Below the pieces are notes generated by a model, which was given only the letters and a program-made list of their open reading frames with translations, did no database searches and was not told the DNA's origin. The translations under genes and the position numbers were made by a program. DNA of 64,000 nt from Sphingomonas jatrophae (GTDB lineage: Bacteria; Pseudomonadota; Alphaproteobacteria; Sphingomonadales; Sphingomonadaceae). Numbering within the stretch: position 1 is the first letter of the stretch; each line of letters opens with the position of its first letter. Below, piece by piece: positions 10,256 through 57,476 of the stretch. The stretch covers positions 558,001 through 622,000 of the forward strand of contig NZ_FOZG01000002.1 in the NCBI RefSeq assembly GCF_900113315.1. The letters run 5' to 3'.

Positions 10256-10268
10256 GGAGCCCCTCCCC

Positions 10269-14628: not shown

Positions 14629-14635
14629 GATCGCC

Positions 14636-18354: not shown

Positions 18355-18367
18355 GTCGGCGCAGTCC

Positions 18368-23478: not shown

Positions 23479-23490
23479 GCTACTCGCTCC

Positions 23491-24726: not shown

Positions 24727-24815
24727 GACAAGGCTCTCCTGTGGCCAGCCACGCTGGCGGATCGAAGGGGCGTTCTGCAAGTGATCGAACCGACTGATCC
24801 GATCACCACGGCGGA

Positions 24816-26836: not shown

Positions 26837-26982
26837 GCAGCTTATATCGCGCAATCTGATCGATACGACCAACCGTTTGATCTGCTCATTCCAATCTGGA
26901 TATCGGAACGATCGGCAGCCTTTCGTCTGTGATGGTCTTGAAGACTTGAAGCGATCCGCGTGCCCGCGGCGTTTGTTCGTCC
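26837..26982. promoter_or_regulatory. Divergent promoter region between lysR and the second sulfite oxidase
   Basis: This 146-bp region is the only intergenic space serving both directions. A palindrome ATCG-N11-CGAT at 26846-26864 could be a regulator site next to the lysR start. On the plus strand GGAAC (26905-26909) and CGTCTG (26924-26929) resemble ECF-sigma -35 and -10 elements, but the 14-bp spacer is short. Both are weak readings. Confidence 0.4.
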
Positions 26983-28050: not shown

Positions 28051-28559
28051 TCGAAGCGTCAGGGGCATCGGACATCGGCTTCTGGATCGATGCGATCGGG
28101 CGGCTGGTGGTGGCGACCGCGGCCGGGATGGTGCTCGGCTGGGAACGCTCGCGCGAGAACCGGCAGATCATGGGCTTGCGAACGCTGGGTCTGGTCGGTC
28201 TGGCGAGCTGCATCGCCGTGCAGGCGGTCGTGCATAGTGGCCTGCCAAATGTAAACGCCGACGCCGCAGGGCGGGCGATGCAGGGCATTCTGACAGGCGT
28301 CGGTTTCATCGGTGCCGGCGCGGTGCTGCGGGTCGGCCAGGGTCAGGAAGTGCATGGATTGGCGACCGCCGCGTGCATCTGGGTGACGGCCACGATCGGC
28401 GCGGCAGCGGGGTTGGCAGTGTGGCCGCTCATCATCGGCGGGGTGAGCCTTGCAATGCTCGTCCTGTTCGTCGGTGCGCCGCTGGAACGCCGCATCCGCG
28501 AGCGGGCTCGCCGGACGCCGGCCGAGGCCGACAGGAAGGACGTCGAGCGCAAGCCGTGA
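28047..28559 (+). CDS. MgtC/SapB-family membrane protein
   Basis: This 170-aa protein has four hydrophobic helices and the family signature GMVLGWERSRENRQIMGLRTLGLVGLAS (read from about residue 24) with GVGFIGAGAVLRVGQGQEVHGLATAA in the middle. The MgtC family is linked to Mg2+ limitation and stress tolerance, with an uncertain molecular role. The start codon overlaps the sulfite oxidase stop, so the two genes are co-translated. Confidence 0.9.
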   Translation: MIEASGASDIGFWIDAIGRLVVATAAGMVLGWERSRENRQIMGLRTLGLVGLASCIAVQAVVHSGLPNVNADAAGRAMQGILTGVGFIGAGAVLRVGQGQEVHGLATAACIWVTATIGAAAGLAVWPLIIGGVSLAMLVLFVGAPLERRIRERARRTPAEADRKDVERKP

Positions 28560-28610
28560 TCCCGCTGGATCGCCCGGTGCCTGTCGGCGTCGGGAAGCGG
28601 CAAGGTGCAA

Positions 28611-29381
28611 TCAGGACACCAGCGCCGCATCGGCCTGGCGCCGGACCTCGTCGGCGATCGGATGCAACTCGGCCGCGGGTCGCTCGCCCACCACACTATA
28701 GCCGATCCCATCAACCGCCCATGTGACCCGGCCCATGGTCCCGCTGGACGTGCTGGTCATGCTCGCGGTCTTGTCGATCTGCATAGGCCTCGTCAGCACC
28801 GCGAGTTTCGACGCTTGCGGTCCGTCGTAGAGGAGCAGTGCCGCAGGGCCGTGAGGCGTCGCGACCAATCGCCCCCCGCCATAGCGATAGCCGGCTGTGC
28901 TGAGGTCCGGGATGGTGACGCGCTCACCCAGTCGGGCGGAGGTCCACCGGATCAGCATGGCGCGCTGGTCGGGGCCGATTTCCGCCGGTCGTATCCGGTC
29001 GGCGGCATAGACACGGAAATTGTCACTCGCCTCGTTGGCCAGCGCCGCGATGCCCGCGCGGGGTTCACCGCTCCACCGCGCGCTCGACCAGCCCCCGCCA
29101 AACCCCAACGCCAGCAGAAGTGACGCGGCAATGGCGAGTTGCCAACGCGGTTGCCTTTGCCGTCCCCTGATCGCTGCCACGCGCATCGTCGCCGGAATGG
29201 GTTCGTCCGCGATCGTGGTGAACAGGGATGCGAGGGCTCGCGCCTGCTCCGCCTGCTCCCGCAAACGGGCATGCAGATCCGGCTGGCCTTTAAGGTAGGC
29301 GTCAACCAGGCGCTGCCGCTCGGGCGACAACCTGCCATCGATCCATGCGGCCAGATCGTCCTCGCCGATCGGGCTGGTCAT
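28611..29381 (-). CDS. Membrane anti-sigma factor
   Basis: This 256-aa protein has an N-terminal cytoplasmic segment (GEDDLAAWIDGRLSPERQRL, the usual anti-sigma start), one transmembrane helix (WQLAIAASLLLALGFGGGW, about residues 79-98) and a periplasmic C-terminal domain. It overlaps the ECF sigma gene by 4 bp (ATGA), the normal pairing. It should hold the sigma factor at the membrane until a periplasmic signal arrives. No zinc-binding HxxxCxxC motif is seen. Confidence 0.88.
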   Translation of the reverse strand: MTSPIGEDDLAAWIDGRLSPERQRLVDAYLKGQPDLHARLREQAEQARALASLFTTIADEPIPATMRVAAIRGRQRQPRWQLAIAASLLLALGFGGGWSSARWSGEPRAGIAALANEASDNFRVYAADRIRPAEIGPDQRAMLIRWTSARLGERVTIPDLSTAGYRYGGGRLVATPHGPAALLLYDGPQASKLAVLTRPMQIDKTASMTSTSSGTMGRVTWAVDGIGYSVVGERPAAELHPIADEVRRQADAALVS

Positions 29382-29887
29382 TGCACGCTCCTCAATCGCG
29401 GCCGTTCACCCTCCCGGAGGAGTGTCGCCAGACGGTCGCGCCCCCGCGATATGCGCGACATTACCGTGCCCAGCGGCACGCCGGCTACGGCAGCGACCTC
29501 CGCATAGGGCAGGCCCTCGACCGAGACCAGGAGCAGCACCGTTCGCTGTTCTTCAGGCAACGCATCAAGCGCGCGCAGCAGGTCGCGGTGGTGCAGGCCT
29601 GTGTCCTGATCGGCCGGGCGGCCGAGCGCGGCGTCGTCCACGAGGTGGAGCGGAACCGCCGTACCTCGCCGGCTATGCTGCCGCTGATGATCGACCAACA
29701 AATTGTGCAGGATCGCATAGACCCACGGGCGGACCTCCGCACCCCGTCGCTGTCGCCAGCGCCCGACCGCGCGCTCCAGGCAATCCTGCACCACGTCATC
29801 CGCCATCACCCGGTCGCGCAACCACGACCGGGCATAGCGGCGCAGCCCGGGGATCAGCGGTTCGATCGCGGCGGCAAGCGGGTCCAT
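29378..29887 (-). CDS. ECF sigma factor (RNA polymerase sigma-70 family)
   Basis: This 169-aa protein has region 2 (YARSWLRDRVMADDVVQDCLERA, then VRPWVYAILHNLLVDHQRQ) and region 4 (LDALPEEQRTVLLLVSVEGL, then YAEVAAVAGVPLGTVMSRIS). It is third in an operon that starts with a DUF305 gene and a beta-propeller gene. The ATG at 29887 follows the propeller stop by one base. Its likely own target promoter is at 31743-31769. Confidence 0.93.
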   Translation of the reverse strand: MDPLAAAIEPLIPGLRRYARSWLRDRVMADDVVQDCLERAVGRWRQRRGAEVRPWVYAILHNLLVDHQRQHSRRGTAVPLHLVDDAALGRPADQDTGLHHRDLLRALDALPEEQRTVLLLVSVEGLPYAEVAAVAGVPLGTVMSRISRGRDRLATLLREGERPRLRSVQ

Positions 29888-29888
29888 C

Positions 29889-31328
29889 TCAGTCGCGCTG
29901 CACCTGCACGATGCGCCCCGGCGCGCCGTTCACCACCTCCGCAACCGCCAGAAAGCGCCGGGGTGTCGCGGTGCTGCCCTGAACGATCTGCCGGATCGGA
30001 CCCGATGCGTTGACGATCGCCGCACCTGCCGGGTTGCTCATGAAGTTCGCAAGCGGCTCTACCGCACCACTGCCGTCCGCATTGGCGGTCAGCACGAGCA
30101 TGTAAGGCTTTTTGGGCTGCAAACCGGTAACGGCACTTTGCACGACCTGAATGATGCCCTGGTCGAAGAGGGTGATGCTGCTTGCTGTACCTTTGCCGCC
30201 GATCGGCCCCATGGTCAGATGCAACGCCTTGCCGGCCGTGCCGAGCGGCTGGAGATTGTCGGTGCCGGGGCCTGTCGGAACTGCGTTCGACACATAGGCG
30301 ATCGCCTGCGGTGCCTGTCCGACCGGCACGGTGGCAACGACCGTGTTGCCAGCGGTGTCGATCGCGGCGAGCTCATCGGCATTCTCCAGCCCGACGTAGA
30401 TGCGCCGGCCGTCGCCCGATGGCCAGACACCGTGCGGCATCTTGCCGACCGGGATGGTGGCGACGGGCGCGAAGTCGGATGTGCGGAACACCTTCACCGC
30501 ATTCTCTCCGCCGACCGTCACATAGGCGAACTGCCCCTTGGCCGTGCGGGCGAAGTTGACATGGTTGGTGATCGGCCCGGTATCCAGCACCTTCAGGATC
30601 GCGAAGGGTGGTCTCGCATCGAATGCGACCGTCTTGCCGATGTCCTTCAGCGTGAACCACACCTGCTTGCCGTCCGGCGTCGCGGCAATATTGGGACAGA
30701 ACGGGCTTGGCTGTGCCACCTGTCCGACCTGCGCGTGGGTCGCGACATCGAACACGGCCAGCACCGGATTGAACGACGAACAGACATAGCCGTACCGGCC
30801 ATCGGGAGAGAAGATCGTCATGCCCGGACCACCGGGCGTCTTGATGCGCCCCGTCTCCTTGTACGTCGTGGGGTCGAGCACGGCGATATAATCCTCGCCG
30901 CGGACCGTGACCCACACCTCCTTGCCGTTTGGCGTGAAGAACGCCTCGTGCGGACTGCGCCCGACATAGGTCGTGTGTTTGACCGTGTTGGTGGCGGTGT
31001 CGATCCACGACACGGCGTTCGATCCGATCGACACGACCGCCAAGGTCTTCCCGTCCGGCGAGAAGCCGAGGCCGTGGACCAGCACCTGTCCCTTGTAGAG
31101 CGGCGAAAAGTTCATCGGCTGCGGATCGCCGAGCTTGATGACGCCGAGCAGCCGGTTGTCGGCCGGGTCCGTCACCGACACCGTGTTGGAGAATTGTTCA
31201 GACGCATAGACGCGGTCGCGGTGGCTGACGGGCATGTCCTTAGCGTTCCACGGCGCCTGCTGGGCCATGGCGAGGCCCGGTGCGGCGCTCATCAGCAAGG
31301 CGGCCGAGCGCAGGATGGTCCGGATCAT
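29889..31328 (-). CDS. Secreted YncE-like beta-propeller protein
   Basis: This 479-aa protein has a signal peptide (MIRTILRSAALLMSAAPGLAMA) and repeated YVTN-type blades (SNTVSVTDPADNRLLGVIKL; NAVSWIDTATNTVKHTTYVG; NAVKVFRTSDFAPVATIPVG; AIDTAGNTVVATVPVG), giving about seven blades. A further C-terminal domain of about 110 residues follows. It is probably periplasmic. Such propellers often bind partners or metals, but the role is unknown here. It lies one base after the DUF305 gene and one base before the sigma factor. Confidence 0.85.
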   Translation of the reverse strand: MIRTILRSAALLMSAAPGLAMAQQAPWNAKDMPVSHRDRVYASEQFSNTVSVTDPADNRLLGVIKLGDPQPMNFSPLYKGQVLVHGLGFSPDGKTLAVVSIGSNAVSWIDTATNTVKHTTYVGRSPHEAFFTPNGKEVWVTVRGEDYIAVLDPTTYKETGRIKTPGGPGMTIFSPDGRYGYVCSSFNPVLAVFDVATHAQVGQVAQPSPFCPNIAATPDGKQVWFTLKDIGKTVAFDARPPFAILKVLDTGPITNHVNFARTAKGQFAYVTVGGENAVKVFRTSDFAPVATIPVGKMPHGVWPSGDGRRIYVGLENADELAAIDTAGNTVVATVPVGQAPQAIAYVSNAVPTGPGTDNLQPLGTAGKALHLTMGPIGGKGTASSITLFDQGIIQVVQSAVTGLQPKKPYMLVLTANADGSGAVEPLANFMSNPAGAAIVNASGPIRQIVQGSTATPRRFLAVAEVVNGAPGRIVQVQRD

Positions 31329-31329
31329 G

Positions 31330-31713
31330 TCAGTGCTCCATAGGGCTATGGTGGTCGCCGCCCTGCGTCGGGGCTGGCGTCGAAGGGGGTAGCGGCTGAC
31401 CGATCGCCAGCTTCATGGCGGCGATCTCCTGCTGCTGGTCGATGATGATCTCCTGCGCGATGCGCTTGAGCTGCTCGTTATGGCCATAGCGCAGCTCCGC
31501 CACCGCCATATCGATGGCGCCCTGATGATGCGGGAGCATCATCGCCACGAAGTCGCGGTCGACGTCGCCGGACGGCTTGACCATCATGCCCGCCATCATC
31601 CGGTCCATCGCGGCAGACACTATGCTGGCGTAGCCATCGGCAGGGGAGGCCGCGGCTGCGCCTGTAAGTAGGGCCGGAGCAGTCAGACCCAGCATCCAGT
31701 TTCGTCTATGCAT
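31330..31713 (-). CDS. DUF305 exported protein
   Basis: This 127-aa protein has a signal peptide (MHRRNWMLGLTAPALLTGAA) and the DUF305 core with the FVAMMLPHHQGAIDMA motif and a Met/His-rich pattern (MDRMMAGMM, HHSPMEH), suggestive of metal, often copper, binding. I chose the ATG at 31713 because it starts the signal peptide and because the ATG at 31743 lies inside the -10 box of the ECF-type promoter. It is the first gene of the sigma operon. Confidence 0.82.
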   Translation of the reverse strand: MHRRNWMLGLTAPALLTGAAAASPADGYASIVSAAMDRMMAGMMVKPSGDVDRDFVAMMLPHHQGAIDMAVAELRYGHNEQLKRIAQEIIIDQQQEIAAMKLAIGQPLPPSTPAPTQGGDHHSPMEH

Positions 31714-31742
31714 AAGCCTCCGGCGCATCAGTCCTGAAAGCA

Positions 31743-31769
31743 TAGACGACGCTCGCCCGGGTTTATTCC
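31743..31769 (-). promoter_or_regulatory. ECF-type promoter of the DUF305-propeller-sigma operon
   Basis: On the minus strand GGAATAA (31769-31763) and CGTCTA (31748-31743) are separated by 14 bp (16 bp if only GGAAT is counted). An AA(T/C)-containing -35 and a CGTC-containing -10 are typical of ECF sigma promoters, and these operons are usually autoregulated. The element sits directly upstream of the operon. Confidence 0.6.
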
Positions 31770-31928
31770 ATGGGTGAGCCGGTTATCAGCCTTCCCGATT
31801 GGGAACGTTCAGCGGGACGGTCGGCTGGGCCGCCTCATAGGGCCTCAACAGCAGATTTCGCTTTCCCAAAACCTGTTCCCGAAATATGAGTCCCGAAACT
31901 GGCGGTTCGGGATGGAGTTACGGGACAA
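31770..31928. other. Non-coding region upstream of the second resolvase, possible res site
   Basis: This region lies between the ECF promoter and the resolvase start. It contains CCCGAAA at 31882-31888 and 31896-31902, and inverted TTCGGGA and TACGGGA at about 31908 and 31919. Such clustered direct and inverted motifs before a serine resolvase gene are what a res site would look like. The assignment is inference. Confidence 0.4.
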
Positions 31929-32495
31929 GTGCTGATCGGCTATGCGCGTGTCTCGACCGCCGATCAGGATCTGACGCTGCAAACCGATGCGCTGACCAAG
32001 GCCGGATGCGAGAAGCTGTTCACCGACAAAGCGAGCGGCGCGAAGACGACCCGACCGGGCCTGACGGAAGCGCTCGACTTCGTGCGGGCCGGCGACACGC
32101 TGGTGATCTGGAAGCTCGACCGGCTCGGCCGCTCGATCCAGGGGCTGATCGAGCTGGCGGCCGACCTGTCGGCACGCAAGGTCCATTTCCGTTCGCTGAC
32201 GGATGGCTTCGACACCTCCACGTCCTCGGGCCGACTCCTGTTTCACATACTCGCCTCGGTCGCCGAGATGGAACGCGAGCTGATCAAGGAGCGGACCATC
32301 GCCGGGTTGGCGGCAGCACGGGCGAAGGGCGGCACCGGCGGAGGCCGCAAATCGGTGATGACCCCCGACATGCTCGACACCGCGCGCAAGCTGCTCGCCG
32401 CGGGCGACAAGCCCGCCAAGGTGGCGAAGCTGCTTCAGGTCGGTCGTTCGACCTTCTACCGTCACTTCCCCGCGAGCGAGCGGGAACCGGCATGA
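31929..32495 (+). CDS. Serine resolvase/invertase (second copy)
   Basis: This 188-aa protein starts at GTG and reads MLIGYARVSTADQDLTLQTD, with the catalytic Ser in RVST. It contains DTLVIWKLDRLGRSIQG, the E-helix (VAEMERELIKERT) and a C-terminal HTH (KVAKLLQVGRSTFYRHF). It is related to the resolvase at 22211-22795 but clearly divergent. Its last 34 bp overlap the 3' end of the convergent transposase gene. Confidence 0.93.
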   Translation: MLIGYARVSTADQDLTLQTDALTKAGCEKLFTDKASGAKTTRPGLTEALDFVRAGDTLVIWKLDRLGRSIQGLIELAADLSARKVHFRSLTDGFDTSTSSGRLLFHILASVAEMERELIKERTIAGLAAARAKGGTGGGRKSVMTPDMLDTARKLLAAGDKPAKVAKLLQVGRSTFYRHFPASEREPA

Positions 32496-34103: not shown

Positions 34104-37100
34104 TCACGACCCGCTCTCAAAAAAACGCCGGCAAAATTGGTGAGCCAGTCTGTCACGATAATTGAGGATGTTGTCCTCAACGGTAGCCACCTCGCAGGTT
34201 TCAGTTCCGCCATTTGCCGTACCGCGCAGGCCGCGGCCGACCATCTGCATGTAGCGGACTGGGCTAAACACTGGCCGAGAGATCAAAATCATGTCGGAGC
34301 GTGGGGCGTCGAATCCGGTGGTCAGCACGCTGTGGTTGCAAAGGACTCGTAATTCGCCCGACCGAAATCGACGTATGAAATGCTGGCGCGCGAGCCGATC
34401 GGTTTCGCCGCTGACCGCCCCTGCTGGGCAGCCGAGCAGATGGAGCTTCGCGGCCAGGAACTGAGCATGTTTGACCGAATTGGCGAACAACAGAACTGAA
34501 GACGCATTGCTGGCAAGCACACGCTTGACGATCTCGTCGTTGCGGTCGGGGTCGGCGCCGAGCTCCTCCATCACAGACTCAGGTAGCTCTCCATATTGCT
34601 CGAAGTGGCGGATGTCCGTGTCGGACAGCTCGAACGGGCGGTCGTAAGTGATTGGGCTGTAGGTGAGCGCCGACAGCACCTGACGCCTCCTCAGCTCATC
34701 ATAAAGACCCTCTTGGTCGGCAGGCAACCAGCGTCGATCAAACCGCGCCGCAAGACGCGCCGATTCATCGTCGTCGCGGCCGCGCCAAGGGGTGGCGCTA
34801 AGCCCGATCACCGGCGGCTCGTTCTCGCGCTCGGCTTCACCGCCGGTCTGCACATCAAGCCAACGCAACAACGAGCTGTAGCTCGGGGCAATTGCATGGT
34901 GACACTCGTCGATGACAACGATCCCGGGTTGGCTGAGCCAATCAAGGCTGTTGTGATCGAGCCGCGCGTTGAGCGTCTGGATACTTGCCACCACGACGAT
35001 CGCTTCACCGGCCTCGGGGGGCACCGGGCTGTTCTGGCCACCCCAGAGCCGGACCACGCGCAAATCCTCGCCTTCAACGCCGACGTTTGACCAGAGTTGG
35101 CGGAAGCATTGTACCGCCTGCTCGCACAGTTCGTCGGTTTGGGCGATCCATAAGGCGCTACGCTGACCGTCGCGATTGAGCACCAGGCGCACAACGGCCT
35201 CGGCGGCTACGCGCGTCTTGCCACCACCGGTCGGAAGGCTGACGACGGCGCGGCGACGGCCAAGACCTGACTCGAGCAGCGTTTCGAGACCGCCGAGAAT
35301 GTCCTGTTGATAGTCATGCAGCTCGGGCAGCGCCAATGGTCCGCCAACCAGCAGCTCCGCATCGCGACGCACCGAAGCGCTCGTGCCAAATTCGAGCGGA
35401 AAGCCGAGCTCGGTGACAAACTCGCGCGCGGCCGGGCCACCCCAACGTCCCGGCGGGTCGAGGCCCTCGGCGGTGAGCACGGCGGCAAGCTTGACCAAAA
35501 TCGTTGGCCCGAACACCGCCAACGCAAGTTCGGCAATGGCGCTGTCGCTAAGGCCAGTCTCTATGGCATCCACCACCGGCTCGGGCAGAATGGCCATGAG
35601 TGGCGTGGCGGTGCCGCCAACCGCACAGAGCAGGCGCGCCGGCAGTCCTTCAGCGGCGCGCACGGCGGCGCGGGCGTCGCGTGAGCGTGCCCCGCGAAGC
35701 TGGTTCAGCAGCGCCTCGACCTCGCCTTGCACCAAGCCGAAGGCAATCAGGCTGCGCAGCAACAACGCCCGACCCTCAATCCAGCTGAGCGCAAGAAAGC
35801 GCTGCCGGTCAATCATGATCAGACCGGTGCTGTCTTGGGCGATCGCGGGTTCGGAGACACGATGGCCGGCCTTTTCGACCAGGCCTTCGACCCAGACCGC
35901 ATCGGCGCGCTTGGCGGCGCGGCTAGTCAGGACATTGCTGAGCTCGGGAAAAATGTCGCGCAGCAGCAAGGGGGCGCCGAGCTGCGAGCCGGCCTCGACC
36001 TCGCTGTGCGCGTCAAGTTCGCGCGCGCCCGCATTGGCCCATCGCTCAGCGGCCGCGTTCGACAAGATGACGATGCGGCCGTCGTCGTCACTGGCCGCGA
36101 ATGGATTGTTGTCGGTCGCCACGAAAATCTCAGTTAGCGGCAACGGCCCGGCGCGCGTCGGCACCCGAGCTGGCACTTCCTGGTGTGCGCTCGCTTGCTC
36201 CCAAACCGGTCGCAACTCTGCGAACCCTTTTGACGCCCCCTCGAGGGCCGCGAACACCGCTTGCCAGAACGCGCCGCGCAACGCGGAGTCGAGCTCGTCG
36301 CGATCGCGCGCGATCCGGACGTCGACCTGAGCCGCTTGTGCCTCGAACAGCGGCAGCAAGGCCGGTGCCCCGGCTAATTGGGCAGCGGCGAAGGCCGAGA
36401 CCAGATCAATGTCGAGGCATTTCAGTCGGACTAGCGCGCTCCCGACAGCAAAGGTGCCGAACCGGAACAGCCAGAACATCAGCGGATGCGCAGCGGTCAG
36501 CGACGGATAATGGTCGCGTCGCGTGAGGTGGCCATAGCTGATCGCGGGCCATGGCGCAGGCTGCGCGGCCGGCCGGAAGCGGTCACGCTGACTGTTCGCC
36601 ATGCCCCCAAGCAAATGAAGGGTGAGCGCCGCGGCGTGGTCGGCGGGAAGCGACGGCAGTAGCCGCCAGCTGGAGGGCATCTTGATGTAATCGCGATCGA
36701 GGATGCCGACTTTGCCATATTGCGGATTGCCGGGCATTTTTGGCCAGCCGACCTGCTGCACCTTGTCCAGATAGGGCTTCATGTGCGCCCAGTTCAGGCC
36801 GGGCCACTCGCTCACCCATTCGCAGTCGGTCGGCCCGAACGGCGTCCAAAACTCGTCCGGCAGCCGCTCGCGGTGTGCGGCGTGATAGTCGGTGTCGAGC
36901 AGCAGTGCCGCAGCGATCCCCTTGCGTGCGTCCGGCGCGAGCGCGACCAACTCGTCGCGCGGCTTGAACTCACCGGAAACATTGCGGAACTGCAGTGAGC
37001 CAAGATGCGCCTCCTCGAAGAACTGGGTGGTCGCGGCGCGCGGCGCCTCGGCCAGATTGGCCCAAAAGGTCAGCCATAAGGCGGTTTCATCGCCCGACAC

Positions 37101-38876
37101 CGCGCTACCCAGCGATTGCTCGAGCAGCTGGCCCCAGACATCGTCAGACAGCACCTTGACGCCGAAAGTCGCGGTCAGCAGCTCATGGGCGCGCGCGTCT
37201 TCACCCACGGCCGACGCGACGGCGCTGAATCCGGCCGGCGTCAACGCCACCGGTGCCAGGATCGCCTGCGCCGGCGTCACCAGCCGCCCATCGACTGTCG
37301 GAACGATCCGCGCCTGCCGGATGCGCTGCAGCGGCATCAATTTGCGGACATTTACAATCTCGTCGACGAAATGGAGGAAGGCGACGGCGTTCGCCGGGTC
37401 AGCGGTCGCGGCAGCCTCCAGCCATTCAGTTTCGCCCCATGACCGTAGCGACGGGGTTGCCGCCTTGCCCGACCGCTCGGTGATTTCGCGCGCGAACGCT
37501 TCGAGCCGAGCCGCCCGGCGCCGGCCCGACTGGCAAGCGGTATGAACTAACTGGTCGCGCGTCCCGGTGGGCGCGAAGCCCGCCCACCAGCGCAGTGCTT
37601 CAGGCTCGACCAGCGGATGGCGACCGAGCGTCGCGGCTTGCTGCAGGTCACCCGCGCCGTCGGCGACGATCGCCCGGTTGATCAGCGCCGCCCAAAGCGG
37701 CTCAACAAGGGAAGCGGCGAGCTCGTCCTTGCGTTCGAGCTGGCGGGGCAGCGCCGAGATCGGCGCGCCCGGGTCGCCGGGTGTCGCCAACGCCGCTATA
37801 TTGGCTGCGATCAGCGCGGCTGCCTCGGCCATCAGGATAGTGTTCCACGGTCCGGCGATGACATTGGTGCGGTCGCTGTTCAGCTTCCACGGCGCATTGA
37901 GGATGCCAGCCGCGAATGTGTCGCTCTGCGTCGGAAAGAAGGCCCAGAACCGCCCGGCAATCTCGCGCGCGCCGAGCGGTACCGCCCAGGCGAGCGGCAC
38001 TTCCTCTCGCGCCTGCAGATGCTGGGCGTCGGACAGCGCCGAGGGATCGGTGACGCGAACCTTGGTCTGGAACAGCCGCCATCGGCTTTCGGTCGTGCCG
38101 TCATCGACGATAAAGATCTCACCCTCGCGCCGACGCGTGATCTTCCGGCGCAGCCCCGCGTCAGTTTCGAGGACGAGTTCGACATCGGCATCGAGGAAAA
38201 GGATGAACTCGGCGGGGAAGCTTGCCATTTCTTCGGAGAGCCGGTCGTAGACGTCAGGCTGCTCGATCGCCGCGGTCACAACGGTGGTCGCCCAGTCGAA
38301 CGCGCCATGGCGGCGCAGCGGCCCCTCAGGCGCCGCTGGATCTAGCACTTGCGCCAGGCGCATACCCGGCGCGCGCGCGTCAGCGGCGAGCCCGAGATGA
38401 TCGCGGATCTGCCCGCGGCACCAGACCGGATCGAAGCGCAGCCCGATCGAGCGGCTGACGAGGTCGACCTGCCCGCCCAATTTCAGCAGCGACTTGAAGC
38501 CGATCCCGAACCGGCCGATCTGGCCCGCGCGCTTCGACGAGCTGCGCGCGTTGAGGAGAGCGACAACTCCGTCCTGATCGATCGGCGCGCCGGTGTTCGC
38601 CGCCGCCAGACGCTTTCGGTCAAGCACCACCTCGATACGGCCGCGCTCCTCGCCGCCTTCGCCGATCGCGTCGGCGGCGTTCTGGACCAGCTCGAACAGC
38701 TGGCGATAGGCATAGCCGCCCGAGAGGACTTCGACCTCGGTCTCAAAATGCTCGTTCGCGTCGCGGGGCTGCGCGCTGTACGCCCGCAGGCGGCGATCGC
38801 ATTCATCGGCGACGAAAGCGGCGAGTGCGGCGAACGCGCCGCCCGGATTGGCTGACTCAACAGAAACCGACGCCAC
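34104..38876 (-). CDS. Sacsin-type GHKL ATPase fused to an SF2 (DEAD/DEAH-like) helicase
   Basis: This protein of about 1590 aa has an N-terminal Hsp90/sacsin-like ATPase with the N-box LFELVQNAADAIGEG (Glu62, Asn66, Asp69) and GRFGIGFKSLLKL (about 113-125). A middle region of about 1000 residues is unassigned. The C-terminal SF2 helicase has Walker A SLPTGGGKTRVAAE (near 1214), DECH in VVIDECHHAI, SATPWRG and motif VI QMVGRGLRG (near 1543). I prefer GTG at 38876 because GGGGGA lies just upstream; an ATG at 38981 would leave only 11 bp to the divergent gene. GHKL-helicase fusions occur in phage-defence contexts, and defence is the likely role (inference). Confidence 0.85.
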   Translation of the reverse strand: MASVSVESANPGGAFAALAAFVADECDRRLRAYSAQPRDANEHFETEVEVLSGGYAYRQLFELVQNAADAIGEGGEERGRIEVVLDRKRLAAANTGAPIDQDGVVALLNARSSSKRAGQIGRFGIGFKSLLKLGGQVDLVSRSIGLRFDPVWCRGQIRDHLGLAADARAPGMRLAQVLDPAAPEGPLRRHGAFDWATTVVTAAIEQPDVYDRLSEEMASFPAEFILFLDADVELVLETDAGLRRKITRRREGEIFIVDDGTTESRWRLFQTKVRVTDPSALSDAQHLQAREEVPLAWAVPLGAREIAGRFWAFFPTQSDTFAAGILNAPWKLNSDRTNVIAGPWNTILMAEAAALIAANIAALATPGDPGAPISALPRQLERKDELAASLVEPLWAALINRAIVADGAGDLQQAATLGRHPLVEPEALRWWAGFAPTGTRDQLVHTACQSGRRRAARLEAFAREITERSGKAATPSLRSWGETEWLEAAATADPANAVAFLHFVDEIVNVRKLMPLQRIRQARIVPTVDGRLVTPAQAILAPVALTPAGFSAVASAVGEDARAHELLTATFGVKVLSDDVWGQLLEQSLGSAVSGDETALWLTFWANLAEAPRAATTQFFEEAHLGSLQFRNVSGEFKPRDELVALAPDARKGIAAALLLDTDYHAAHRERLPDEFWTPFGPTDCEWVSEWPGLNWAHMKPYLDKVQQVGWPKMPGNPQYGKVGILDRDYIKMPSSWRLLPSLPADHAAALTLHLLGGMANSQRDRFRPAAQPAPWPAISYGHLTRRDHYPSLTAAHPLMFWLFRFGTFAVGSALVRLKCLDIDLVSAFAAAQLAGAPALLPLFEAQAAQVDVRIARDRDELDSALRGAFWQAVFAALEGASKGFAELRPVWEQASAHQEVPARVPTRAGPLPLTEIFVATDNNPFAASDDDGRIVILSNAAAERWANAGARELDAHSEVEAGSQLGAPLLLRDIFPELSNVLTSRAAKRADAVWVEGLVEKAGHRVSEPAIAQDSTGLIMIDRQRFLALSWIEGRALLLRSLIAFGLVQGEVEALLNQLRGARSRDARAAVRAAEGLPARLLCAVGGTATPLMAILPEPVVDAIETGLSDSAIAELALAVFGPTILVKLAAVLTAEGLDPPGRWGGPAAREFVTELGFPLEFGTSASVRRDAELLVGGPLALPELHDYQQDILGGLETLLESGLGRRRAVVSLPTGGGKTRVAAEAVVRLVLNRDGQRSALWIAQTDELCEQAVQCFRQLWSNVGVEGEDLRVVRLWGGQNSPVPPEAGEAIVVVASIQTLNARLDHNSLDWLSQPGIVVIDECHHAIAPSYSSLLRWLDVQTGGEAERENEPPVIGLSATPWRGRDDDESARLAARFDRRWLPADQEGLYDELRRRQVLSALTYSPITYDRPFELSDTDIRHFEQYGELPESVMEELGADPDRNDEIVKRVLASNASSVLLFANSVKHAQFLAAKLHLLGCPAGAVSGETDRLARQHFIRRFRSGELRVLCNHSVLTTGFDAPRSDMILISRPVFSPVRYMQMVGRGLRGTANGGTETCEVATVEDNILNYRDRLAHQFCRRFFESGS

Positions 38877-38992
38877 TTGTCCCCCAAAAAGTTCTAATTC
38901 CCCGAGCGCAATCTGGCGAAGTTTCCCGCCATTGTTAAGGTCATAACGGCTGTGTAGCGTCTGCTTTTGAGTTCGCGCCATCGATCAGCGCG
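38877..38992. promoter_or_regulatory. Short divergent promoter region
   Basis: If the preferred starts are used, about 116 bp separates the GHKL-helicase gene (minus) from the RecD-like gene (plus). It is A/T-richer than its surroundings (for example CATTGTTAAGGTCATAACGG at 38931-38950), fitting overlapping divergent promoters. No consensus boxes are claimed. Confidence 0.4.
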
Positions 38993-41900
38993 TTGGGGGG
39001 AGTGGCGGTTCTGGGCAGGGGCAATATTCGTCATCTTTCGGTGCGCGTGCCATGGCACGACAGCGGCTGGAACGGCCGCGTCTGCAACGACGTCCGCGCC
39101 AATTCGGCGTGTCTCGCGCTCAAGCGCACCGCCGAAAGTCGCGATGACGCCTATGAGACCGCATGCGCGGGCGAGGCGTTCGAAGAGCTCGATCGGCTGC
39201 CGCCCTGTCTCGCCGAGCGCGGCGCCTTCCTGTCGCCCTTCGGCCTGCCGCTCAGGACCGAACTCGACTATTCGCGCTACAGCGACGCACATCGCCATAT
39301 CCTGCCCCAGACGGTGCAGGTGCCGGCCTATGGCGGCGTGCTCACGCCCTATCGCTGGATGCTGCGCGAGCATGCCTGGCCGCTCGCCGAGGCGCACGGG
39401 ATCGATGCCGAAGAGGCGCGCGAGCCCAAAGAAGGCGAGGCCCCCGATCTCATCGTCCACACCGCCTGGGTGCAAGATTGCGACAATCAGGCGGCGCTTC
39501 TCGACGGCTTCAGCCGCAGCCTCTCGCCAACCGGCTCGCTCATCTTCTTCTACGCCAAGCAGACGCCGCTGACCGATTCCGGACGCCGCCAGATCGTCGC
39601 CGTCGCCAAGTTGGAGACGCTCGGCAGCGTCGGGGAGTATCCGTACGAAGGCGGCAAAGCCGCCGGACGGCTGCGGTCAATGATCTGGGAACGACCGTTT
39701 CAGCACTCACTGCGACCCGATCCCGACGGGGACGGCGCTTGGCTCGGCGGTGTCGTCCTACCCTATCACGCGCTGATCGCACAGGCGGCGACGCAGCCCG
39801 AGCTCGATCCCTCGCGCCTCGTCGCCGAAGTGCCCGAGGAAGCTTATGAGCAATTTCTCTACGGGACCGATCACGTCACTCATGGCAGCGCGATCACCGC
39901 GCTGCAGGCGGTGCGCGCTTCGCTCGAGGCGACCGCCGAGGTGCTGCCCGGGCCTTGGGCGCGGTACATCGCGTGGATCGATAACGAGCTGAGCGAGCTC
40001 TGGGCAATGCAAGGCCCGACGCCCGGCCTTGGCAGCGCGCTCTCATGCTTCGACCCCAATTTCAACGGCACTTTGTTCGCTCACGCCATCGCCGGCGAGC
40101 TCGAGGACGGGGCCGATCCCTGGCCGGTGGTCGACGCGATCTTCGCCGACACGCGCAAACCGCCCGAGGGCGCGCCACGCCTCACCTCGATGCAGCGCAA
40201 GCGCTGGCAGCACCTCCATCGCACCGATCCGCAAGGCGCGAAGATGCTGCGGCTGCTGGCCAGCTTCGAGCTCAGTCGCGACCAGGCGCAGGCGGCGTTC
40301 AATGGTGACGAGGTCGAGGCCATCCTGGCCAACCCCTATCGCCTTTACGAAGCGTCGCGCCTGACCGAGACGCCGATCAGCCTGACCACGGTTGACCGCA
40401 GCCTGTATCCATCCGACCCGAAATTGGTCCGGCCGTTGCTTCCCGACGATCTCGCGGTCGATCTGACCGAGCCCGAAGACCCGCTGCGGCTGCGCGCGCT
40501 GGTCATCGAAGCGCTCGAACGTGCGGCTGCTGCCGGCCACACGGTGCTGCCGGCCGCGCGAATCAATGCCGCCGTCGCCGAGCTGCCGTTGTCGGCGCCG
40601 GTCTCGGTCGACGCGACCGCGCTCGAGATCTGCGCCGACGACTTCGCGCCCGAAGTGGCGATCCTTAGCGAAGATGGCCCGACGCTCGCCCAGCTCGTGC
40701 GCTATGTCGGCACGCGCGACGTGCTTCGCCAGCATGTCGATGCGCGGGTGGCGAGCGGCGTCGCCACGATCGACTGGCGCACGTTGGTCGAGGCGCAATT
40801 TGGCGCGCCGGTCGCCGGCGATAGCGACGAACGCGCGGCGCAAGACGAGAAGATCAAGGCGCTCGCCGTGCTCGAGGCCAGCCGGATCTCGGTGCTGACC
40901 GGGCCGGCGGGCACCGGCAAGACGACGCTGCTCAAGATCTTCCTCGATCAGAAGAAGCTCGTCGGCAACGATGTCCAGTTGCTCGCCCCGACCGGGAAGG
41001 CGCGGGTACGTCTCGGGCAGCAAACCAAGCGTCCAGACAAGGCGCGCACGCTCGCGCAGTTCCTGCTCGAACATGGCCGCTACAACACCAAAACCGGCCA
41101 TTATGCGGTGATCGCCGATGGCCCGACGGCCGCGGTCACGACCTGCGTAGTCGATGAATGCTCGATGCTGACCGAGGATCAGTTGGCCGCCTTGTGCAGC
41201 GCGCTGCCCTTATCGGCGCGGCTGATCCTGGTCGGCGACCCGCAGCAGCTGCCGCCGATCGGCGCCGGCCGCCCGTTCGTCGACATCATCGCCCATCTGC
41301 GCAAGCAGCATGGCGGCGCGGGCCTCGCCGACCTCACCGTCAGCCGACGACAGGCAGCCGCAGGCCTGGTCCCTGCCCTCTCGCTTGCCGACGTCCAGCT
41401 CGCCAATCTGTTCTCCGGGCGTGCCGCCGAACCTGGCGAGGACGAGATCGTCGGGATCATCGACCAAGCGCAGGCGAGCGACCGCTTAAAGCTCGTCGAA
41501 TGGGACACGCCCGTGCAGCTGCGCGAGCAGTTGCTCGACGTCCTTGGCGACGAATTCGACGCCGAGCGCGACGCCCTCGAAGCGGAGATCGAACGCTCGC
41601 TCGGCGGGACGCCCAGCGGGAATCACATCTATTTCAACCGCGGCTGCGGCGAGCGCGCCGAGGCTTGGCAGATCCTCTCGGCGCACCGCAATATGGCCAG
41701 CGGCTCGGCCGAGCTCAATCGCTTCTTGAAGCAAACGATTCGCGCCGAGCGGCTGGCGACGGCTCGTCGTCGCGGTTACGGCTGGCGGATGATCGAGCCG
41801 CGCGGCGCCGATCAGATCACCTATGGCGACAAAGTCATCTGCCTGCGCAACCACCCGCGCAATCGCTGGAACAATGTCGACGGCAAGCGCAAGGGCTATC

Positions 41901-42730
41901 TCGCCAATGGCGAGGTCGGGATCGTCAATGGCGACGCGGGCAACTACAAACCGACCTACACCAAGGTCGAGTTCGCCTCTCAGCCCGGCGAAAGTTACAG
42001 CTTCCGCAAGAGCGACTTTTCAGAAGAAGGCAGCCCCTATCTCGAGCTCGCCTATGCAGTGACCGTTCACAAGGCTCAAGGCTCAGAGTTCGGCACGGTC
42101 ATCCTCGTGCTGCCACATAACAGCCGACTGCTGACCCGCGAGATGCTCTACACCGCCCTTACCCGGCAGAAGGAGCGCGTCTGGATTCTCCATCAAGGGC
42201 CGTTTGCGCACTACCTGCGGCTTCGCTCCGACTTCTTCTCCGAAACGAAACGGCGCTCGACAAATCTGTTCGGCGCACCCGACATGTACGACGCAGCCGT
42301 GACGAGCCCCGGCGGCGTCCGCACCGGTTGGCTGGCGGCTAATCTCATCCACGCCACCAAGCGCGGCGATCTCGTCAGCTCCAAATCCGAGCTGGTGATC
42401 GCCGACATCCTCTACGATCTCGAGCAGCACGGGCGGATCCGCTACAGTTTCGAAAAACCACTAACCGATGCATCGGGCGCGCTGCGACTCCCAGACTTTA
42501 CTGTCGAAAAGGACGCCGAGACGTGGTTTTGGGAGCATTGCGGCCTGATGGGTCAGCCGCAATATCGCGAGCGATGGGCGCGTAAGAAGAAATGGTATGA
42601 AGCGCAGGGGATCACGCCTTGGAGCGCAGACAATCCCGGTGGGCGGCTGATTGTGACCGAGGATAGCTTAGCGGGCGGCATTGATAGCGGGGCGATCACG
42701 AAGCTGGCCGTCGAACTGTTCGACAAATGA
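38993..42730 (+). CDS. RecD-like SF1 helicase with Cys-containing N-domain and C-terminal PD-(D/E)XK-like nuclease
   Basis: This 1245-aa protein has three parts. Residues 1-380 begin with HLSVRVPWHDSGWNGRVC and carry cysteines at 31, 40, 58 and 72; I cannot assign this region to a named fold. Residues about 620-1060 are a RecD/Dna2-type SF1B helicase: Walker A GPAGTGKTTLLK (near 636), VVDECSML, VGDPQQLPPIGAG and AVTVHKAQGSEF. Residues about 1125-1190 look like a PD-(D/E)XK nuclease (SELVIADILYDL, LPDFTV, FWEHCG). The TTG at 38993 is the outermost start; GTG at 39002 is an alternative. It is divergent from the GHKL-helicase gene. Confidence 0.88.
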   Translation: MGGVAVLGRGNIRHLSVRVPWHDSGWNGRVCNDVRANSACLALKRTAESRDDAYETACAGEAFEELDRLPPCLAERGAFLSPFGLPLRTELDYSRYSDAHRHILPQTVQVPAYGGVLTPYRWMLREHAWPLAEAHGIDAEEAREPKEGEAPDLIVHTAWVQDCDNQAALLDGFSRSLSPTGSLIFFYAKQTPLTDSGRRQIVAVAKLETLGSVGEYPYEGGKAAGRLRSMIWERPFQHSLRPDPDGDGAWLGGVVLPYHALIAQAATQPELDPSRLVAEVPEEAYEQFLYGTDHVTHGSAITALQAVRASLEATAEVLPGPWARYIAWIDNELSELWAMQGPTPGLGSALSCFDPNFNGTLFAHAIAGELEDGADPWPVVDAIFADTRKPPEGAPRLTSMQRKRWQHLHRTDPQGAKMLRLLASFELSRDQAQAAFNGDEVEAILANPYRLYEASRLTETPISLTTVDRSLYPSDPKLVRPLLPDDLAVDLTEPEDPLRLRALVIEALERAAAAGHTVLPAARINAAVAELPLSAPVSVDATALEICADDFAPEVAILSEDGPTLAQLVRYVGTRDVLRQHVDARVASGVATIDWRTLVEAQFGAPVAGDSDERAAQDEKIKALAVLEASRISVLTGPAGTGKTTLLKIFLDQKKLVGNDVQLLAPTGKARVRLGQQTKRPDKARTLAQFLLEHGRYNTKTGHYAVIADGPTAAVTTCVVDECSMLTEDQLAALCSALPLSARLILVGDPQQLPPIGAGRPFVDIIAHLRKQHGGAGLADLTVSRRQAAAGLVPALSLADVQLANLFSGRAAEPGEDEIVGIIDQAQASDRLKLVEWDTPVQLREQLLDVLGDEFDAERDALEAEIERSLGGTPSGNHIYFNRGCGERAEAWQILSAHRNMASGSAELNRFLKQTIRAERLATARRRGYGWRMIEPRGADQITYGDKVICLRNHPRNRWNNVDGKRKGYLANGEVGIVNGDAGNYKPTYTKVEFASQPGESYSFRKSDFSEEGSPYLELAYAVTVHKAQGSEFGTVILVLPHNSRLLTREMLYTALTRQKERVWILHQGPFAHYLRLRSDFFSETKRRSTNLFGAPDMYDAAVTSPGGVRTGWLAANLIHATKRGDLVSSKSELVIADILYDLEQHGRIRYSFEKPLTDASGALRLPDFTVEKDAETWFWEHCGLMGQPQYRERWARKKKWYEAQGITPWSADNPGGRLIVTEDSLAGGIDSGAITKLAVELFDK

Positions 42731-42803
42731 TGAAGCGATCTTTTAGGAGGTGCAGCCAGCGGCTGGAAACGAGAGCTGTTGCTCAAGATGTGCTAGACTT
42801 AGA

Positions 42804-42959
42804 ATGTCGAAATTCTACGTCGATATCGACGAGCGCCTGCTTCCAGACCTGCAGACCGCGCCTGGATTAGAAAGCAGCCAGTCCGCTTGCCCCCAACACT
42901 TGGTCACTCAGGGCACTAACCCAGCTTGCCCGAAGCAGACACCTGTTCACGCTGTTTGA
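42804..42959 (+). CDS. Small open reading frame of doubtful status
   Basis: This 51-codon frame starts MSKFYVDIDERLLPDL and then loses any protein-like pattern. There is no good ribosome site. The first 16 residues look protein-like and could be the relict start of a larger gene. It lies in the 325-bp gap between the RecD-like and GHKL-nuclease genes, which otherwise holds nothing I can name. Confidence 0.2.
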   Translation: MSKFYVDIDERLLPDLQTAPGLESSQSACPQHLVTQGTNPACPKQTPVHAV

Positions 42960-43055
42960 TCAAGCCTTCTGCAACTCAGGCAGCGGCACTAAACGGCAAA
43001 AAGGGGATATCCCGATAGCCGCCCGTCGCGTGAGGCCCGGTAGCGAGGACGATCG

Positions 43056-45092
43056 ATGCGATCGATTGTCACACCTGCACCGGTTCGCCTAAGCCGTGCC
43101 GGGGAGGATCGCACTGTGACCGCTGAGACCGACACGCTCGTCAAACCCGACATGGTGGCGGTGCTCCAGCGGACCCACGTCAGCAAGGATCTCCACGGCT
43201 TTCTGCTGCCGACGCTCGAGGCGGTGTCGAACGCGATGCACGGGATAGAGGCGCGCTTCCGCGATGACGCCCGCAAGCAGGGCACGATCGAAATCGCGAT
43301 GTCGAGCATCAACGATCCCCAGCACCTGATGATCTCGATTACCGACAACGGCATCGGTCTCGACGACGGCAACTACCGCTCGTTCAAGACCCCGTTTTCA
43401 GGCCACAAGCTTCAGCAGAATGGCCGCGGCTTCGGCCGCTTCATCGCCTTCAAGGTGTTCAACCGCATCCTCTACTCGAGCCGGTTCGAGGCACTGCCGG
43501 CGCCCGACAGGCGCACCTTCCGTTTCGACATCCACCGGGAGGACGAACTTATCTACCATGACGGCGAGCCGGACTTTGCGCATCTCGGCCTTCGCGTCGA
43601 CTATGACGAGCCCCGCCCCGAGTGGCACGAGCTGATCGCCACGCTCGACGAGAGCGACATCGCCGACCATATCGGCAGCCACTTCCTGCCGCATTTCCTC
43701 TACCGCTGGCTGCCCGAGATCACGATCCGGTTCGACGACGCCGAGGCCAGCAGCATCACCGCCCACTTCAAGAACATCTTCGTCCAGTCGGAATTGGGCT
43801 CCTTCGACGTCCAGATCGATGGCAAGGCAGAGACGATCGACTATTCGCTGACCAAGGTGCCGCGCACCCGGTCGTTCAAAAACCACAGCCTGCTGTTCGC
43901 CGCGGGCGATCGCATCGTCGGCAATCCGCGCGACCTCACCAATCTGCTCGGCCAGCCCGCCTTCATGGACGATCAGGACAAGCCCTATATCGTGATCGGC
44001 GTTGTGCGATCGGACGCGTTCGAGACGCGGCTGAACGACGCGCGGACCGGGATCAACATTTCGCCGGCGATCATTGAAGAGATTGTCGGTGCGGTCGGCG
44101 ACATCATTCAGTCGACCGAGAAGAGCCAAATTGACAAGATCAAGACGACTCAATCGCGCGATCTCGAGACGGCGCTCCAGGAAAATCCGATCCTTCGGAT
44201 CGGGCTCAAAGGTCAGTCGATTTCGAGTTACGTCGCGGGAAAGCCGAACAACTGGAAGGCGCAGCAGTTCGTGTCGGACCTCGCGATCGAGCGTTACCGC
44301 GTGTCGCGGGATCTGACCAAGGCGATCACCAGCGCGGCCAACGACCCCGACAACTACATGACCAACATCAAGGACATCGTCGACAAGATCGATGCCTCCA
44401 ACAAGGAGGCGCTCGCCGAGTATGTCGTCCACCGCAAGAAGGTGATCGAGCTGATCGAGGCCGCGCGCAAATATGGCTCGAGCGGCACCCACGCGCCCGA
44501 AGACACGATCCACGATCTCGTCTTCCACCGCTTTTCGGACAGCGTCGATACCGACTATTTCGAGCACAATCTGTGGCTGGTCGACGACGCGCTGGCGTTC
44601 CTGCCGTACATCTCGAGCGACCGCGCGATGCACGGCAAGGGCCGCAAGAAAGGCGACAAGATCGCCGATCTCGCCTTCTTCGATGACAGCCTCGTCCTCG
44701 GCGACAATGACGGCACGACGATCACGATCATCGAGTTCAAGCGGCCGAGCCGCGACGATTACCGGTTCGGAGACGTCAAGCACGATCCCGTCATGCAGGT
44801 GATCGAGACGCTCAAGGACGCCACCATGGCGGGCGGGATCGCGCGGACGGACGGTTCGCACTTCGCGTTCCGCGGCGTCGTGCGCCGGTTTGGCTATATC
44901 GTCGCGGACCTGAAGCCGTCACTCGTGAATGTGCTGCGCAACCACGACTTTAAGAACGACTGGAACCCTGACATCTACGTTCGCTACCGCGACAACGAGC
45001 AGATCTTCATCCAGGCTATGGGCTACGATACGCTGATCGCCCATGCCAAAAAGCGCAACCAGGCCTTCTTCAGCGTCCTGTTCGGTGATTAG
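43056..45092 (+). CDS. GHKL ATPase with C-terminal PD-(D/E)XK-like nuclease domain
   Basis: This 678-aa protein has an N-terminal GHKL ATP-binding domain: N-box LEAVSNAMHGIEAR (about 52-65), ITDNGIGLDDG (about 95-105) and GRGFGRFIAFKVF (about 123-135). A middle helical region of about 300 residues follows. The C-terminal part reads KIADLAFFDDSL, then TITIIEFKRPSR and DPVMQVIETL (about 535-585), giving the D...ExK...Q pattern of a PD-(D/E)XK nuclease. ATG at 43056 has GAGGA upstream; GTG at 43116 also has a good site. It follows the RecD-like gene on the same strand. It could be an ATP-gated DNA nuclease (inference). Confidence 0.85.
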   Translation: MRSIVTPAPVRLSRAGEDRTVTAETDTLVKPDMVAVLQRTHVSKDLHGFLLPTLEAVSNAMHGIEARFRDDARKQGTIEIAMSSINDPQHLMISITDNGIGLDDGNYRSFKTPFSGHKLQQNGRGFGRFIAFKVFNRILYSSRFEALPAPDRRTFRFDIHREDELIYHDGEPDFAHLGLRVDYDEPRPEWHELIATLDESDIADHIGSHFLPHFLYRWLPEITIRFDDAEASSITAHFKNIFVQSELGSFDVQIDGKAETIDYSLTKVPRTRSFKNHSLLFAAGDRIVGNPRDLTNLLGQPAFMDDQDKPYIVIGVVRSDAFETRLNDARTGINISPAIIEEIVGAVGDIIQSTEKSQIDKIKTTQSRDLETALQENPILRIGLKGQSISSYVAGKPNNWKAQQFVSDLAIERYRVSRDLTKAITSAANDPDNYMTNIKDIVDKIDASNKEALAEYVVHRKKVIELIEAARKYGSSGTHAPEDTIHDLVFHRFSDSVDTDYFEHNLWLVDDALAFLPYISSDRAMHGKGRKKGDKIADLAFFDDSLVLGDNDGTTITIIEFKRPSRDDYRFGDVKHDPVMQVIETLKDATMAGGIARTDGSHFAFRGVVRRFGYIVADLKPSLVNVLRNHDFKNDWNPDIYVRYRDNEQIFIQAMGYDTLIAHAKKRNQAFFSVLFGD

Positions 45093-47040: not shown

Positions 47041-47084
47041 GAGCCACTCGGGTGAGGGATGGCCCCTGCTAACCCTTTGAAAAA

Positions 47085-47130
47085 TGGCGCGCCCGGAACG
47101 ATTCGAACGTCCGACCCTCAGATTCGTAGT
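47085..47130. other. Probable attachment site (tRNA-Arg 3' half)
   Basis: Tyrosine integrases of conjugative elements commonly target the 3' half of tRNA genes and leave the tRNA intact. Here the tRNA 3' end abuts an AlpA gene and repeated motifs, with core chromosome on the other side. The matching second copy would lie left of the window. Exact limits cannot be set from one end. Confidence 0.45.
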
Positions 47131-47161
47131 CTGATGCTCTATCCAGCTGAGCTACGGGCGC
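47085..47161 (-). tRNA. tRNA-Arg (anticodon ACG)
   Basis: The minus strand folds into a complete 77-nt tRNA including an encoded CCA (47085-47087). The acceptor GCGCCCG pairs with CGGGCGC, the anticodon stem TCAGA/TCTGA encloses CTACGAA with anticodon ACG (complement of 47125-47127), and the T-loop is TTCGAAT. The 3' end points toward the mobile element to the left. Confidence 0.96.
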
Positions 47162-57314: not shown

Positions 57315-57476
57315 AACCGGCGGGCACTGCCCGATACGAGCCGTCGATCATCCCTGAGGCTATTCTTCATCCATGGGAGCTGTCCCTGTTAGGACCTTGG
57401 TCCAAAATACACGGCGCCCACCTGACGTTCTCGGCGTCAGTGGATATCAGGCAAACGGTCATGGCGGTCCCGCCAC
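57315..57476 (+). ncRNA. ssrS: 6S RNA (SsrS)
   Basis: The region between zapA and the cyclo-ligase gene folds as 6S RNA. CCGGCGGGCACTGCC near the 5' end pairs imperfectly with GGCGGTCCCGCC near the 3' end, a central open region follows, and an internal hairpin CTGACG-TTCT-CGGCGTCAG lies at 57422-57440. 6S RNA mimics an open promoter and sequesters sigma-70 RNA polymerase. Limits are approximate. Confidence 0.82.

What the first reader, a model, noticed from the sequence alone, without database searches (positions are those of the whole stretch)
34104..45092. Candidate undescribed defence system: GHKL-helicase, RecD-nuclease and GHKL-nuclease
Three large genes form one block. The first fuses a sacsin-type GHKL ATPase to an SF2 helicase. 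The divergent second is a RecD-like helicase with a nuclease-like C-terminus. The third is a GHKL ATPase with a D...ExK...Q nuclease-like C-terminus. Two GHKL ATPases and two helicases together suggest ATP-gated recognition and destruction of DNA. The block lies beside a BREX-like cassette in a conjugative element, a typical defence island setting. I cannot match the three-gene set to a named system.
Basis: partly seen in the sequence, partly recalled or inferred. Interest (0 to 1): 0.82.

Follow-up and report, generated by a model that had tools for sequence, protein, structure and literature searches.

The report
Two neighbouring defence units, not one
Three large genes at the end of a mobile DNA element are all probably bacterial defence genes, but they belong to two separate units: a rare, interchangeable pair of DNA motors with a DNA-cutting end, and a stand-alone DNA-cutting enzyme of a type already shown to block phages.

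Summary
In detail: three intact ORFs with the stated domains.

P3 (43056-45092, GHKL ATPase plus E-D-ExK nuclease) is not part of a trio. It is paraMORC3, the architecture of the experimentally validated Shedu variant VcSduA. Its homologs stand alone on plasmids, and it is absent from every other P1 or P2 locus fetched.

P2 (38993-42730, RecD-like helicase plus PD-(D/E)xK) is a full-length match to PADLOC's uncharacterised single-gene candidate PDC-S68 and is usually found without P1.

P1 (34104-38981, Hsp90/sacsin-type domain fused to an SF2 helicase) is the interesting part. It is a rare family (about 20 loci among 84,980 species) that switches partners: directly beside P2 in six loci over three P1 branches, beside BREX type I genes in five, near DISARM-type drmA/drmB genes in six. 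I did not find this described.

Most likely P1-P2 is an optional two-gene DNA-restriction module. ATP gating is doubtful for P1, whose adenine-binding Asp is Asn in every full-length homolog. The block is cargo at the attR end of a 110.5-kb ICE in tRNA-Arg. The BREX-related cassette lies 12 kb away, across unrelated cargo.

The parts
34104..38981 (-). P1: Hsp90/sacsin-type GHKL domain (about residues 54-400), long conserved middle region, C-terminal RadD/ResIII-like SF2 helicase (about residues 1220-1607). The true start may lie 35-50 codons inside this ORF.
   Evidence: 15 full-length homologs besides the window
34161..35324 (-). P1 SF2 helicase domain (motifs GGGKT, DECHH, SATP, QMVGRGLRG conserved in the full-length homologs)
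37782..38822 (-). P1 Hsp90/sacsin-like domain: N-box E97/N101/D104 and G2 box kept; G1 box is NxG instead of DxG
38993..42730 (+). P2: RecD-like SF1B helicase with C-terminal PD-(D/E)xK-type nuclease, member of PADLOC PDC-S68; TTG start, true start possibly a few codons inside
42371..42607 (+). P2 predicted nuclease motif (S1130-K-x-E1133, E1154, PD1168F, E1181H, K1198xxxY1202)
43056..45092 (+). P3: stand-alone GHKL ATPase plus E-D-ExK-Q nuclease (paraMORC3 / VcSduA-type architecture); separate unit from P1-P2
   Evidence: PMC2292703; PMC12137116
45398..46138 (+). HTH_3/XRE regulator beside P3; no evidence that it controls the block
47081..47129 (.). attR: 49-bp repeat of the 3' part of tRNA-Arg(acg) (tRNA 47085-47161, - strand); the other copy is at G000:C5:494610-494658, next to a tyrosine integrase, so the ICE is 110.5 kb

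Best explanation
The block is two adjacent but independent defence units carried as cargo at the attR end of an ICE. Unit A is P1-P2, an optional two-gene DNA-restriction module. P2 is a RecD-type helicase whose C-terminal PD-(D/E)xK nuclease cuts the DNA it tracks along. P1 is a large Hsp90/sacsin-type clamp fused to a RadD/ResIII-type SF2 motor, which I infer recognises or remodels an invading-DNA state (an end, a fork or a bound phage protein) and loads or licenses the cutter. P1 is a plug-in: other lineages couple it to BREX type I or to DISARM-type genes instead of P2. Unit B is P3, a GHKL-gated nuclease working like VcSduA: ATP-driven closure of a dimer clamp licenses the E-D-ExK nuclease to cut phage DNA directly. 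Shown here: intact ORFs, domain and motif conservation, adjacency and partner switching, absence of P3 from the other loci, ICE boundaries. Inferred: DNA as the target, P1 as gate/loader, and defence activity itself.
For: P1 is full-length conserved with invariant helicase motifs. P2 is directly adjacent to P1 in six loci with three gene orders: divergent (window, L038, L039), P1 then P2 touching end to start (L043, L045), and P2 then P1 about 30 bp apart (L046). These loci fall in three parts of the P1 tree, while P2 occurs in only 2 of 385 genomes of the class. L053 links a 63%-identical P2 to a different sacsin-domain protein plus an SNF2 helicase. P1 sits beside PglX-PglZ-BrxL genes (L031, L032, L038; BrxL in L051; PglZ in L033) or near drmA/drmB genes (L034, L035, L036, L037, L040, L042). 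P2 equals PDC-S68 at 1400 bits. P3 has the GHKL and E-D-ExK motifs; two relatives carry E27 and K556 or K558, against E27/K557 in VcSduA (PMC12137116); P3 relatives stand alone.
Against: No functional data. P2 has no P1 beside it in the 14 fetched loci that were found through P2 and have useful flanks, so P2 does not need P1. P1-P2 adjacency could partly reflect generic clustering in defence islands. P1's GHKL may not bind ATP (NxG instead of DxG). P3 does not reach the Pfam Shedu profile.
Confidence: 0.55

Rival explanations
1. P1, P2 and P3 are three independent single-gene defence cargoes that merely accumulated next to the ICE attachment site; P1-P2 adjacency elsewhere is also island clustering.
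For: P2 (PDC-S68) is a single-gene candidate usually without P1. P1 appears with many different neighbours. P3 is always alone. Unrelated cargo lies in the same ICE.
Against: Six direct adjacencies with no gene between, including end-to-start contact in L043/L045 and a divergent pair kept at 67-74% identity between the window, a Rhizobium and a Komagataeibacter. L043 shows no other recognised defence gene among the large neighbours tested.
Confidence: 0.3
2. One three-gene system P1-P2-P3 in which two GHKL ATPases gate two helicases and nucleases.
For: P2 and P3 are on the same strand, 325 bp apart; all three are defence-type genes.
Against: P3 is absent from every other P1 or P2 locus fetched. 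Its homologs occur with unrelated neighbours. P3 differs in base composition (GC 0.61 against 0.66 for P1/P2), and the P2-P3 gap is 325 bp at GC 0.57.
Confidence: 0.04
3. P1-P2 is an auxiliary arm of the ICE's DUF499 BREX-related cassette, using its methyltransferase for self/non-self discrimination.
For: P1 homologs sit beside or near BREX or DISARM-type genes in 11 loci. A DUF499-MTase-helicase cassette is in the same ICE.
Against: 12 kb and a separate plasmid-shared cargo lie between. No recognised defence partner was found among the neighbours tested at L043 and L046, though not all neighbours were tested.
Confidence: 0.1

Closest known systems
VcSduA (Shedu type I-D) / paraMORC3 (PMC12137116, PMC2292703)
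   Same: P3: N-terminal GHKL with intact motifs, C-terminal E-D-ExK nuclease, about 670 aa, single stand-alone gene, often on mobile DNA
   Different: Window protein is 23-30% identical to most relatives; Pfam SduA_C not reached; not tested against phage
PDC-S68 (PADLOC phage defence candidate, single gene)
   Same: P2 matches the model end to end (12-1243 of 1245 aa to 5-1219 of 1221, 1400 bits)
   Different: Here paired with P1; the PADLOC entry is an uncharacterised single-gene candidate
Tiamat (TmtA)
   Same: P1 N-terminal Hsp90/sacsin-type domain aligns to the TmtA N-terminus (best 148 bits over 349 residues)
   Different: TmtA models do not match the rest of P1; P1 carries an SF2 helicase
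MORC/paraMORC restriction cassettes (Iyer 2008, PMC2292703)
   Same: Same theme: GHKL ATPase with SF2 helicase and nuclease in restriction-type loci
   Different: P1 fuses a sacsin/SMCHD1-like GHKL to the helicase, has a degenerate G1 box, and pairs with a RecD-type helicase-nuclease
BREX type I and DISARM accessory genes
   Same: P1 homologs sit next to brxL/pglZ or near drmA/drmB genes
   Different: A text search of a 2026 BREX catalogue (PMC12839542) for GHKL, Hsp90, MORC and RecD found none; window P1 is not inside such an operon

Membership tests
paraMORC3 / VcSduA-type Shedu (P3) | N-terminal GHKL ATPase with conserved motifs | tested here: met
   E55xxxN59, D97NGxG101 and G2 box invariant in 11 sequences; HATPase_c 1.8e-6
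paraMORC3 / VcSduA-type Shedu (P3) | C-terminal RE-fold nuclease with E-D-ExK | tested here: met
   E482, D538, E560xK562 and Q581 invariant; the fold itself was not modelled
paraMORC3 / VcSduA-type Shedu (P3) | Stand-alone gene without conserved neighbours | tested here: met
   Ten plasmid relatives with unrelated neighbours
Shedu (P3) | Match to DUF4263/SduA_C profile | tested here: inconclusive
   Only one of 11 relatives, E=0.15; window protein none. VcSduA's own sequence could not be compared directly.
PDC-S68 (P2) | Full-length match to the PADLOC model | tested here: met
   1400 bits over 12-1243
PDC-S68 (P2) | Anti-phage activity | not testable with these tools
   Candidate family; a text search for PDC-S68 found no paper
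RecD2/RecD (P2) | Reaches curated RecD or RecD2 cutoff | tested here: not met
   192 bits against 500 for TIGR01448, 148 against 310 for TIGR01447: RecD-like, not RecD2 or RecD
Tiamat TmtA (P1) | Homology along the whole of TmtA | tested here: not met
   TmtA matches cover P1 47-578 at most; the helicase half is outside
Active GHKL ATPase (P1) | DxGxG adenine-binding motif | tested here: not met
   NTGA or NSGA in all full-length homologs; N-box Glu/Asn kept. Altered or no nucleotide binding is possible.
BREX or DISARM component (window P1) | Encoded within or beside the system's core operon | tested here: not met
   Nearest cassette is 12 kb away across unrelated cargo; met in other loci such as L031, L032, L034, L036

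The most novel reading that the evidence does not exclude
P1 is an undescribed, transferable Hsp90/sacsin-helicase sensor-motor shared by otherwise unrelated restriction systems (BREX type I, DISARM-type, and the RecD-nuclease P2). Together with P2 it forms a new two-gene DNA-degrading defence system in which a nucleotide-altered or pseudo-GHKL clamp senses phage DNA or protein states.
Probability: 0.35. Interest if true: 0.66.

Novelty: new variant of a known kind. Interest (0 to 1): 0.44.

Why it matters
If P1 is a shared plug-in of BREX, DISARM-type systems and RecD-type nucleases, it would point to a common step that these poorly understood systems use and that can be tested by adding or removing one gene. 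It also links eukaryotic sacsin/SMCHD1-type modules to bacterial DNA defence. For the window itself, it corrects a three-gene claim: one gene is already explained.

Tried and rejected
Three-gene system: rejected on co-occurrence. P1 as Tiamat: rejected, N-terminus only. P2 as RecD2: below cutoffs. Profile search of P3 in the PDB gave only weak histidine-kinase and chance matches. Structure of P2's N-terminal 625 residues: six-sequence alignment, pLDDT 49, not used. Viral-contig scans: single-sequence queries with P2 and P3 gave nothing; the P2 alignment gave 12 long P2 relatives, none with P1 found, though several had short flanks. Whole-genome survey with P1 mostly returned ordinary SF2 helicases. 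A regular-expression search for GHKL motifs beside P2 relatives was too insensitive: it missed the known sacsin protein of L053. Literature search for sacsin with DISARM found nothing.

Full report
Observation. The three ORFs exist as described: P1 34104-38981(-), 1625 aa; P2 38993-42730(+), 1245 aa; P3 43056-45092(+), 678 aa. P1 has a sacsin-type N-terminal domain above the NCBIfam cutoff and an SF2 helicase C-terminus. P2 has RecD/RecD2-like helicase domains with scores far below the RecD2 and RecD cutoffs. P3 has a GHKL domain.

P3 is a separate, known kind of gene. An alignment with ten plasmid relatives (59% identity for Paracoccus tegillarcae, 23-30% for the rest) keeps the GHKL N-box E55xxxN59, G1 box D97NGxG101 and G2 box, and a C-terminal E482-D538-E560xK562-Q581. 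This is the paraMORC3 architecture of Iyer et al. 2008 (GHKL-S5 plus an E-D-ExK nuclease, often stand-alone; PMC2292703). It is also the architecture of VcSduA, a Shedu variant with GHKL and PD-(D/E)xK domains in which E27A and K557A abolish phage protection (PMC12137116). In two relatives the equivalent residues are E27 with K556 or K558. The relatives have unrelated neighbours on plasmids of several phyla. The Pfam Shedu profile is not reached, so I claim the architecture and likely mechanism, not a profile-proven Shedu membership.

P2 is a catalogued candidate. It matches PADLOC PDC-S68 over its whole length at 1400 bits. PDC stands for 'phage defence candidate' (PMC11514479); no paper naming PDC-S68 was found. 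P2 and ten relatives keep the Walker motifs and a C-terminal nuclease motif SKSE...E...PDF...EH...K...Y (two relatives deviate at single positions of the SKSE and PDF flanks).

P1 is rare and switches partners. One scan of 84,980 species genomes gave about 20 true relatives, most full length. Helicase motifs are invariant in the 16 full-length proteins. Neighbourhoods: P2 directly adjacent in the window, L038, L039 (divergent), L043, L045 (P1 then P2, end-to-start contact) and L046 (P2 then P1). PglX-PglZ-BrxL in L031, L032, L038; BrxL in L051; a PglZ-domain ORF in L033. drmA and/or drmB with a NERD/UvrD-type helicase gene in L034, L035, L036, L037, L040, L042; in L037 they are some 5 kb away. 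A type IIG-like enzyme and an HKD-SNF2 protein in L047. On the P1 tree the P2-linked members fall in three places and the DISARM-linked members in two. L053 (Sphingomonas changnyeongensis plasmid) couples a 63%-identical P2, read as two ORFs, to a different sacsin-domain protein (Pfam SACS 1.3e-14), a 799-aa protein and an SNF2 helicase. This is independent support for a link between P2, a sacsin-type domain and an SF2 helicase.

From P2's side the link is optional. Two of 385 class genomes carry P2, the window's own included. None of the loci fetched through P2 (seven plasmid loci, genome G336, and the viral contigs) shows P1. P3 is in none of the P1 or P2 loci except the window.

Structure. 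The AlphaFold2 model of P1 46-1215 (17 sequences, pLDDT 82, pTM 0.45) matches the SMCHD1 ATPase module (Z 12.9, 254 residues, rmsd 4.5), sacsin SR1 (Z 12.8, 179 residues, rmsd 3.2) and Hsp90 (Z about 12-13) in its N-terminal part; the middle region was not tested alone. P1 keeps the residues equivalent to Hsp90 Glu33, Asn37, Asp40 and Ala41 (listed in PMC9880540) as E97, N101, D104, A105, but by motif alignment the Asp79 position is Asn in every full-length homolog. So ATP gating by this domain is unproven. P3's box is canonical.

Setting. The block is inside an ICE: tRNA-Arg(acg) at 47085-47161, a 49-bp direct repeat at C5:605081-605129 and C5:494610-494658, and a tyrosine integrase beside the far copy (identified by reading its sequence), giving a 110.5-kb element. 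F-type tra genes lie at 309-10540. The BREX-like cassette at 11857-22098 is a DUF499-MTase-helicase set, the same kind as Hma / BREX-related (BR) systems. It is separated from P1 by a 9.5-kb sulfite-oxidase/transporter cargo at 92-96% identity on many sphingomonad plasmids and an IS1182 transposase gene.

Verdict. Two defence units, P1-P2 and P3. P1-P2 is probably a facultative restriction pair; P1 as a plug-in shared with BREX and DISARM-type loci is the new and testable part.

Noticed in passing
window 47081-47129 and G000:C5:494610-494658: 49-bp direct repeats of the tRNA-Arg(acg) 3' part with a tyrosine integrase at the far end define a 110.5-kb ICE; the P1-P3 block is the last cargo before attR.
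   Followed up: yes
window 11857-22098: DUF499 ATPase, N6/N4 methylase, BrxH/Hma-like SNF2 helicase and a 330-aa ORF with only a weak PglZ C-terminal match: a BREX-related (Hma/BR) cassette, possibly the PglZ-bearing type 3; lower GC3 (0.61-0.66) than its surroundings.
   Followed up: partly
window 22996-32488: Sulfite oxidase, TDT transporter, anti-sigma and YncE cargo shared at 92-96% identity with more than ten sphingomonad plasmids.
   Followed up: partly
L031, L032, L041: P1 (with BREX in L031/L032) lies next to F-type traG/traH/traN genes, so the family repeatedly rides F-type conjugative elements of sphingomonads.
   Followed up: partly
L053:12354-25750: Plasmid gene run of P2 (read as two ORFs), a 1607-aa sacsin-domain protein, a 799-aa unknown and an SNF2 helicase: a possible related undescribed system.
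   Followed up: partly
L071:6716-16920: Arthrobacter plasmid cassette: cytosine methylase, P1-like sacsin protein, ATP-binding protein, PD-(D/E)XK protein, Z1 helicase, resembling the MORC restriction operons of Iyer 2008.
   Followed up: no
L055:4619-8010: In a Vibrio fluvialis plasmid a P3 relative directly follows a 'Shedu immune nuclease family' gene downstream of a type I restriction operon.
   Followed up: no
window 57321-57474: 6S RNA just above the gathering score (47.1 against 46.4 bits) beyond the ICE end, in chromosomal sequence.
   Followed up: no
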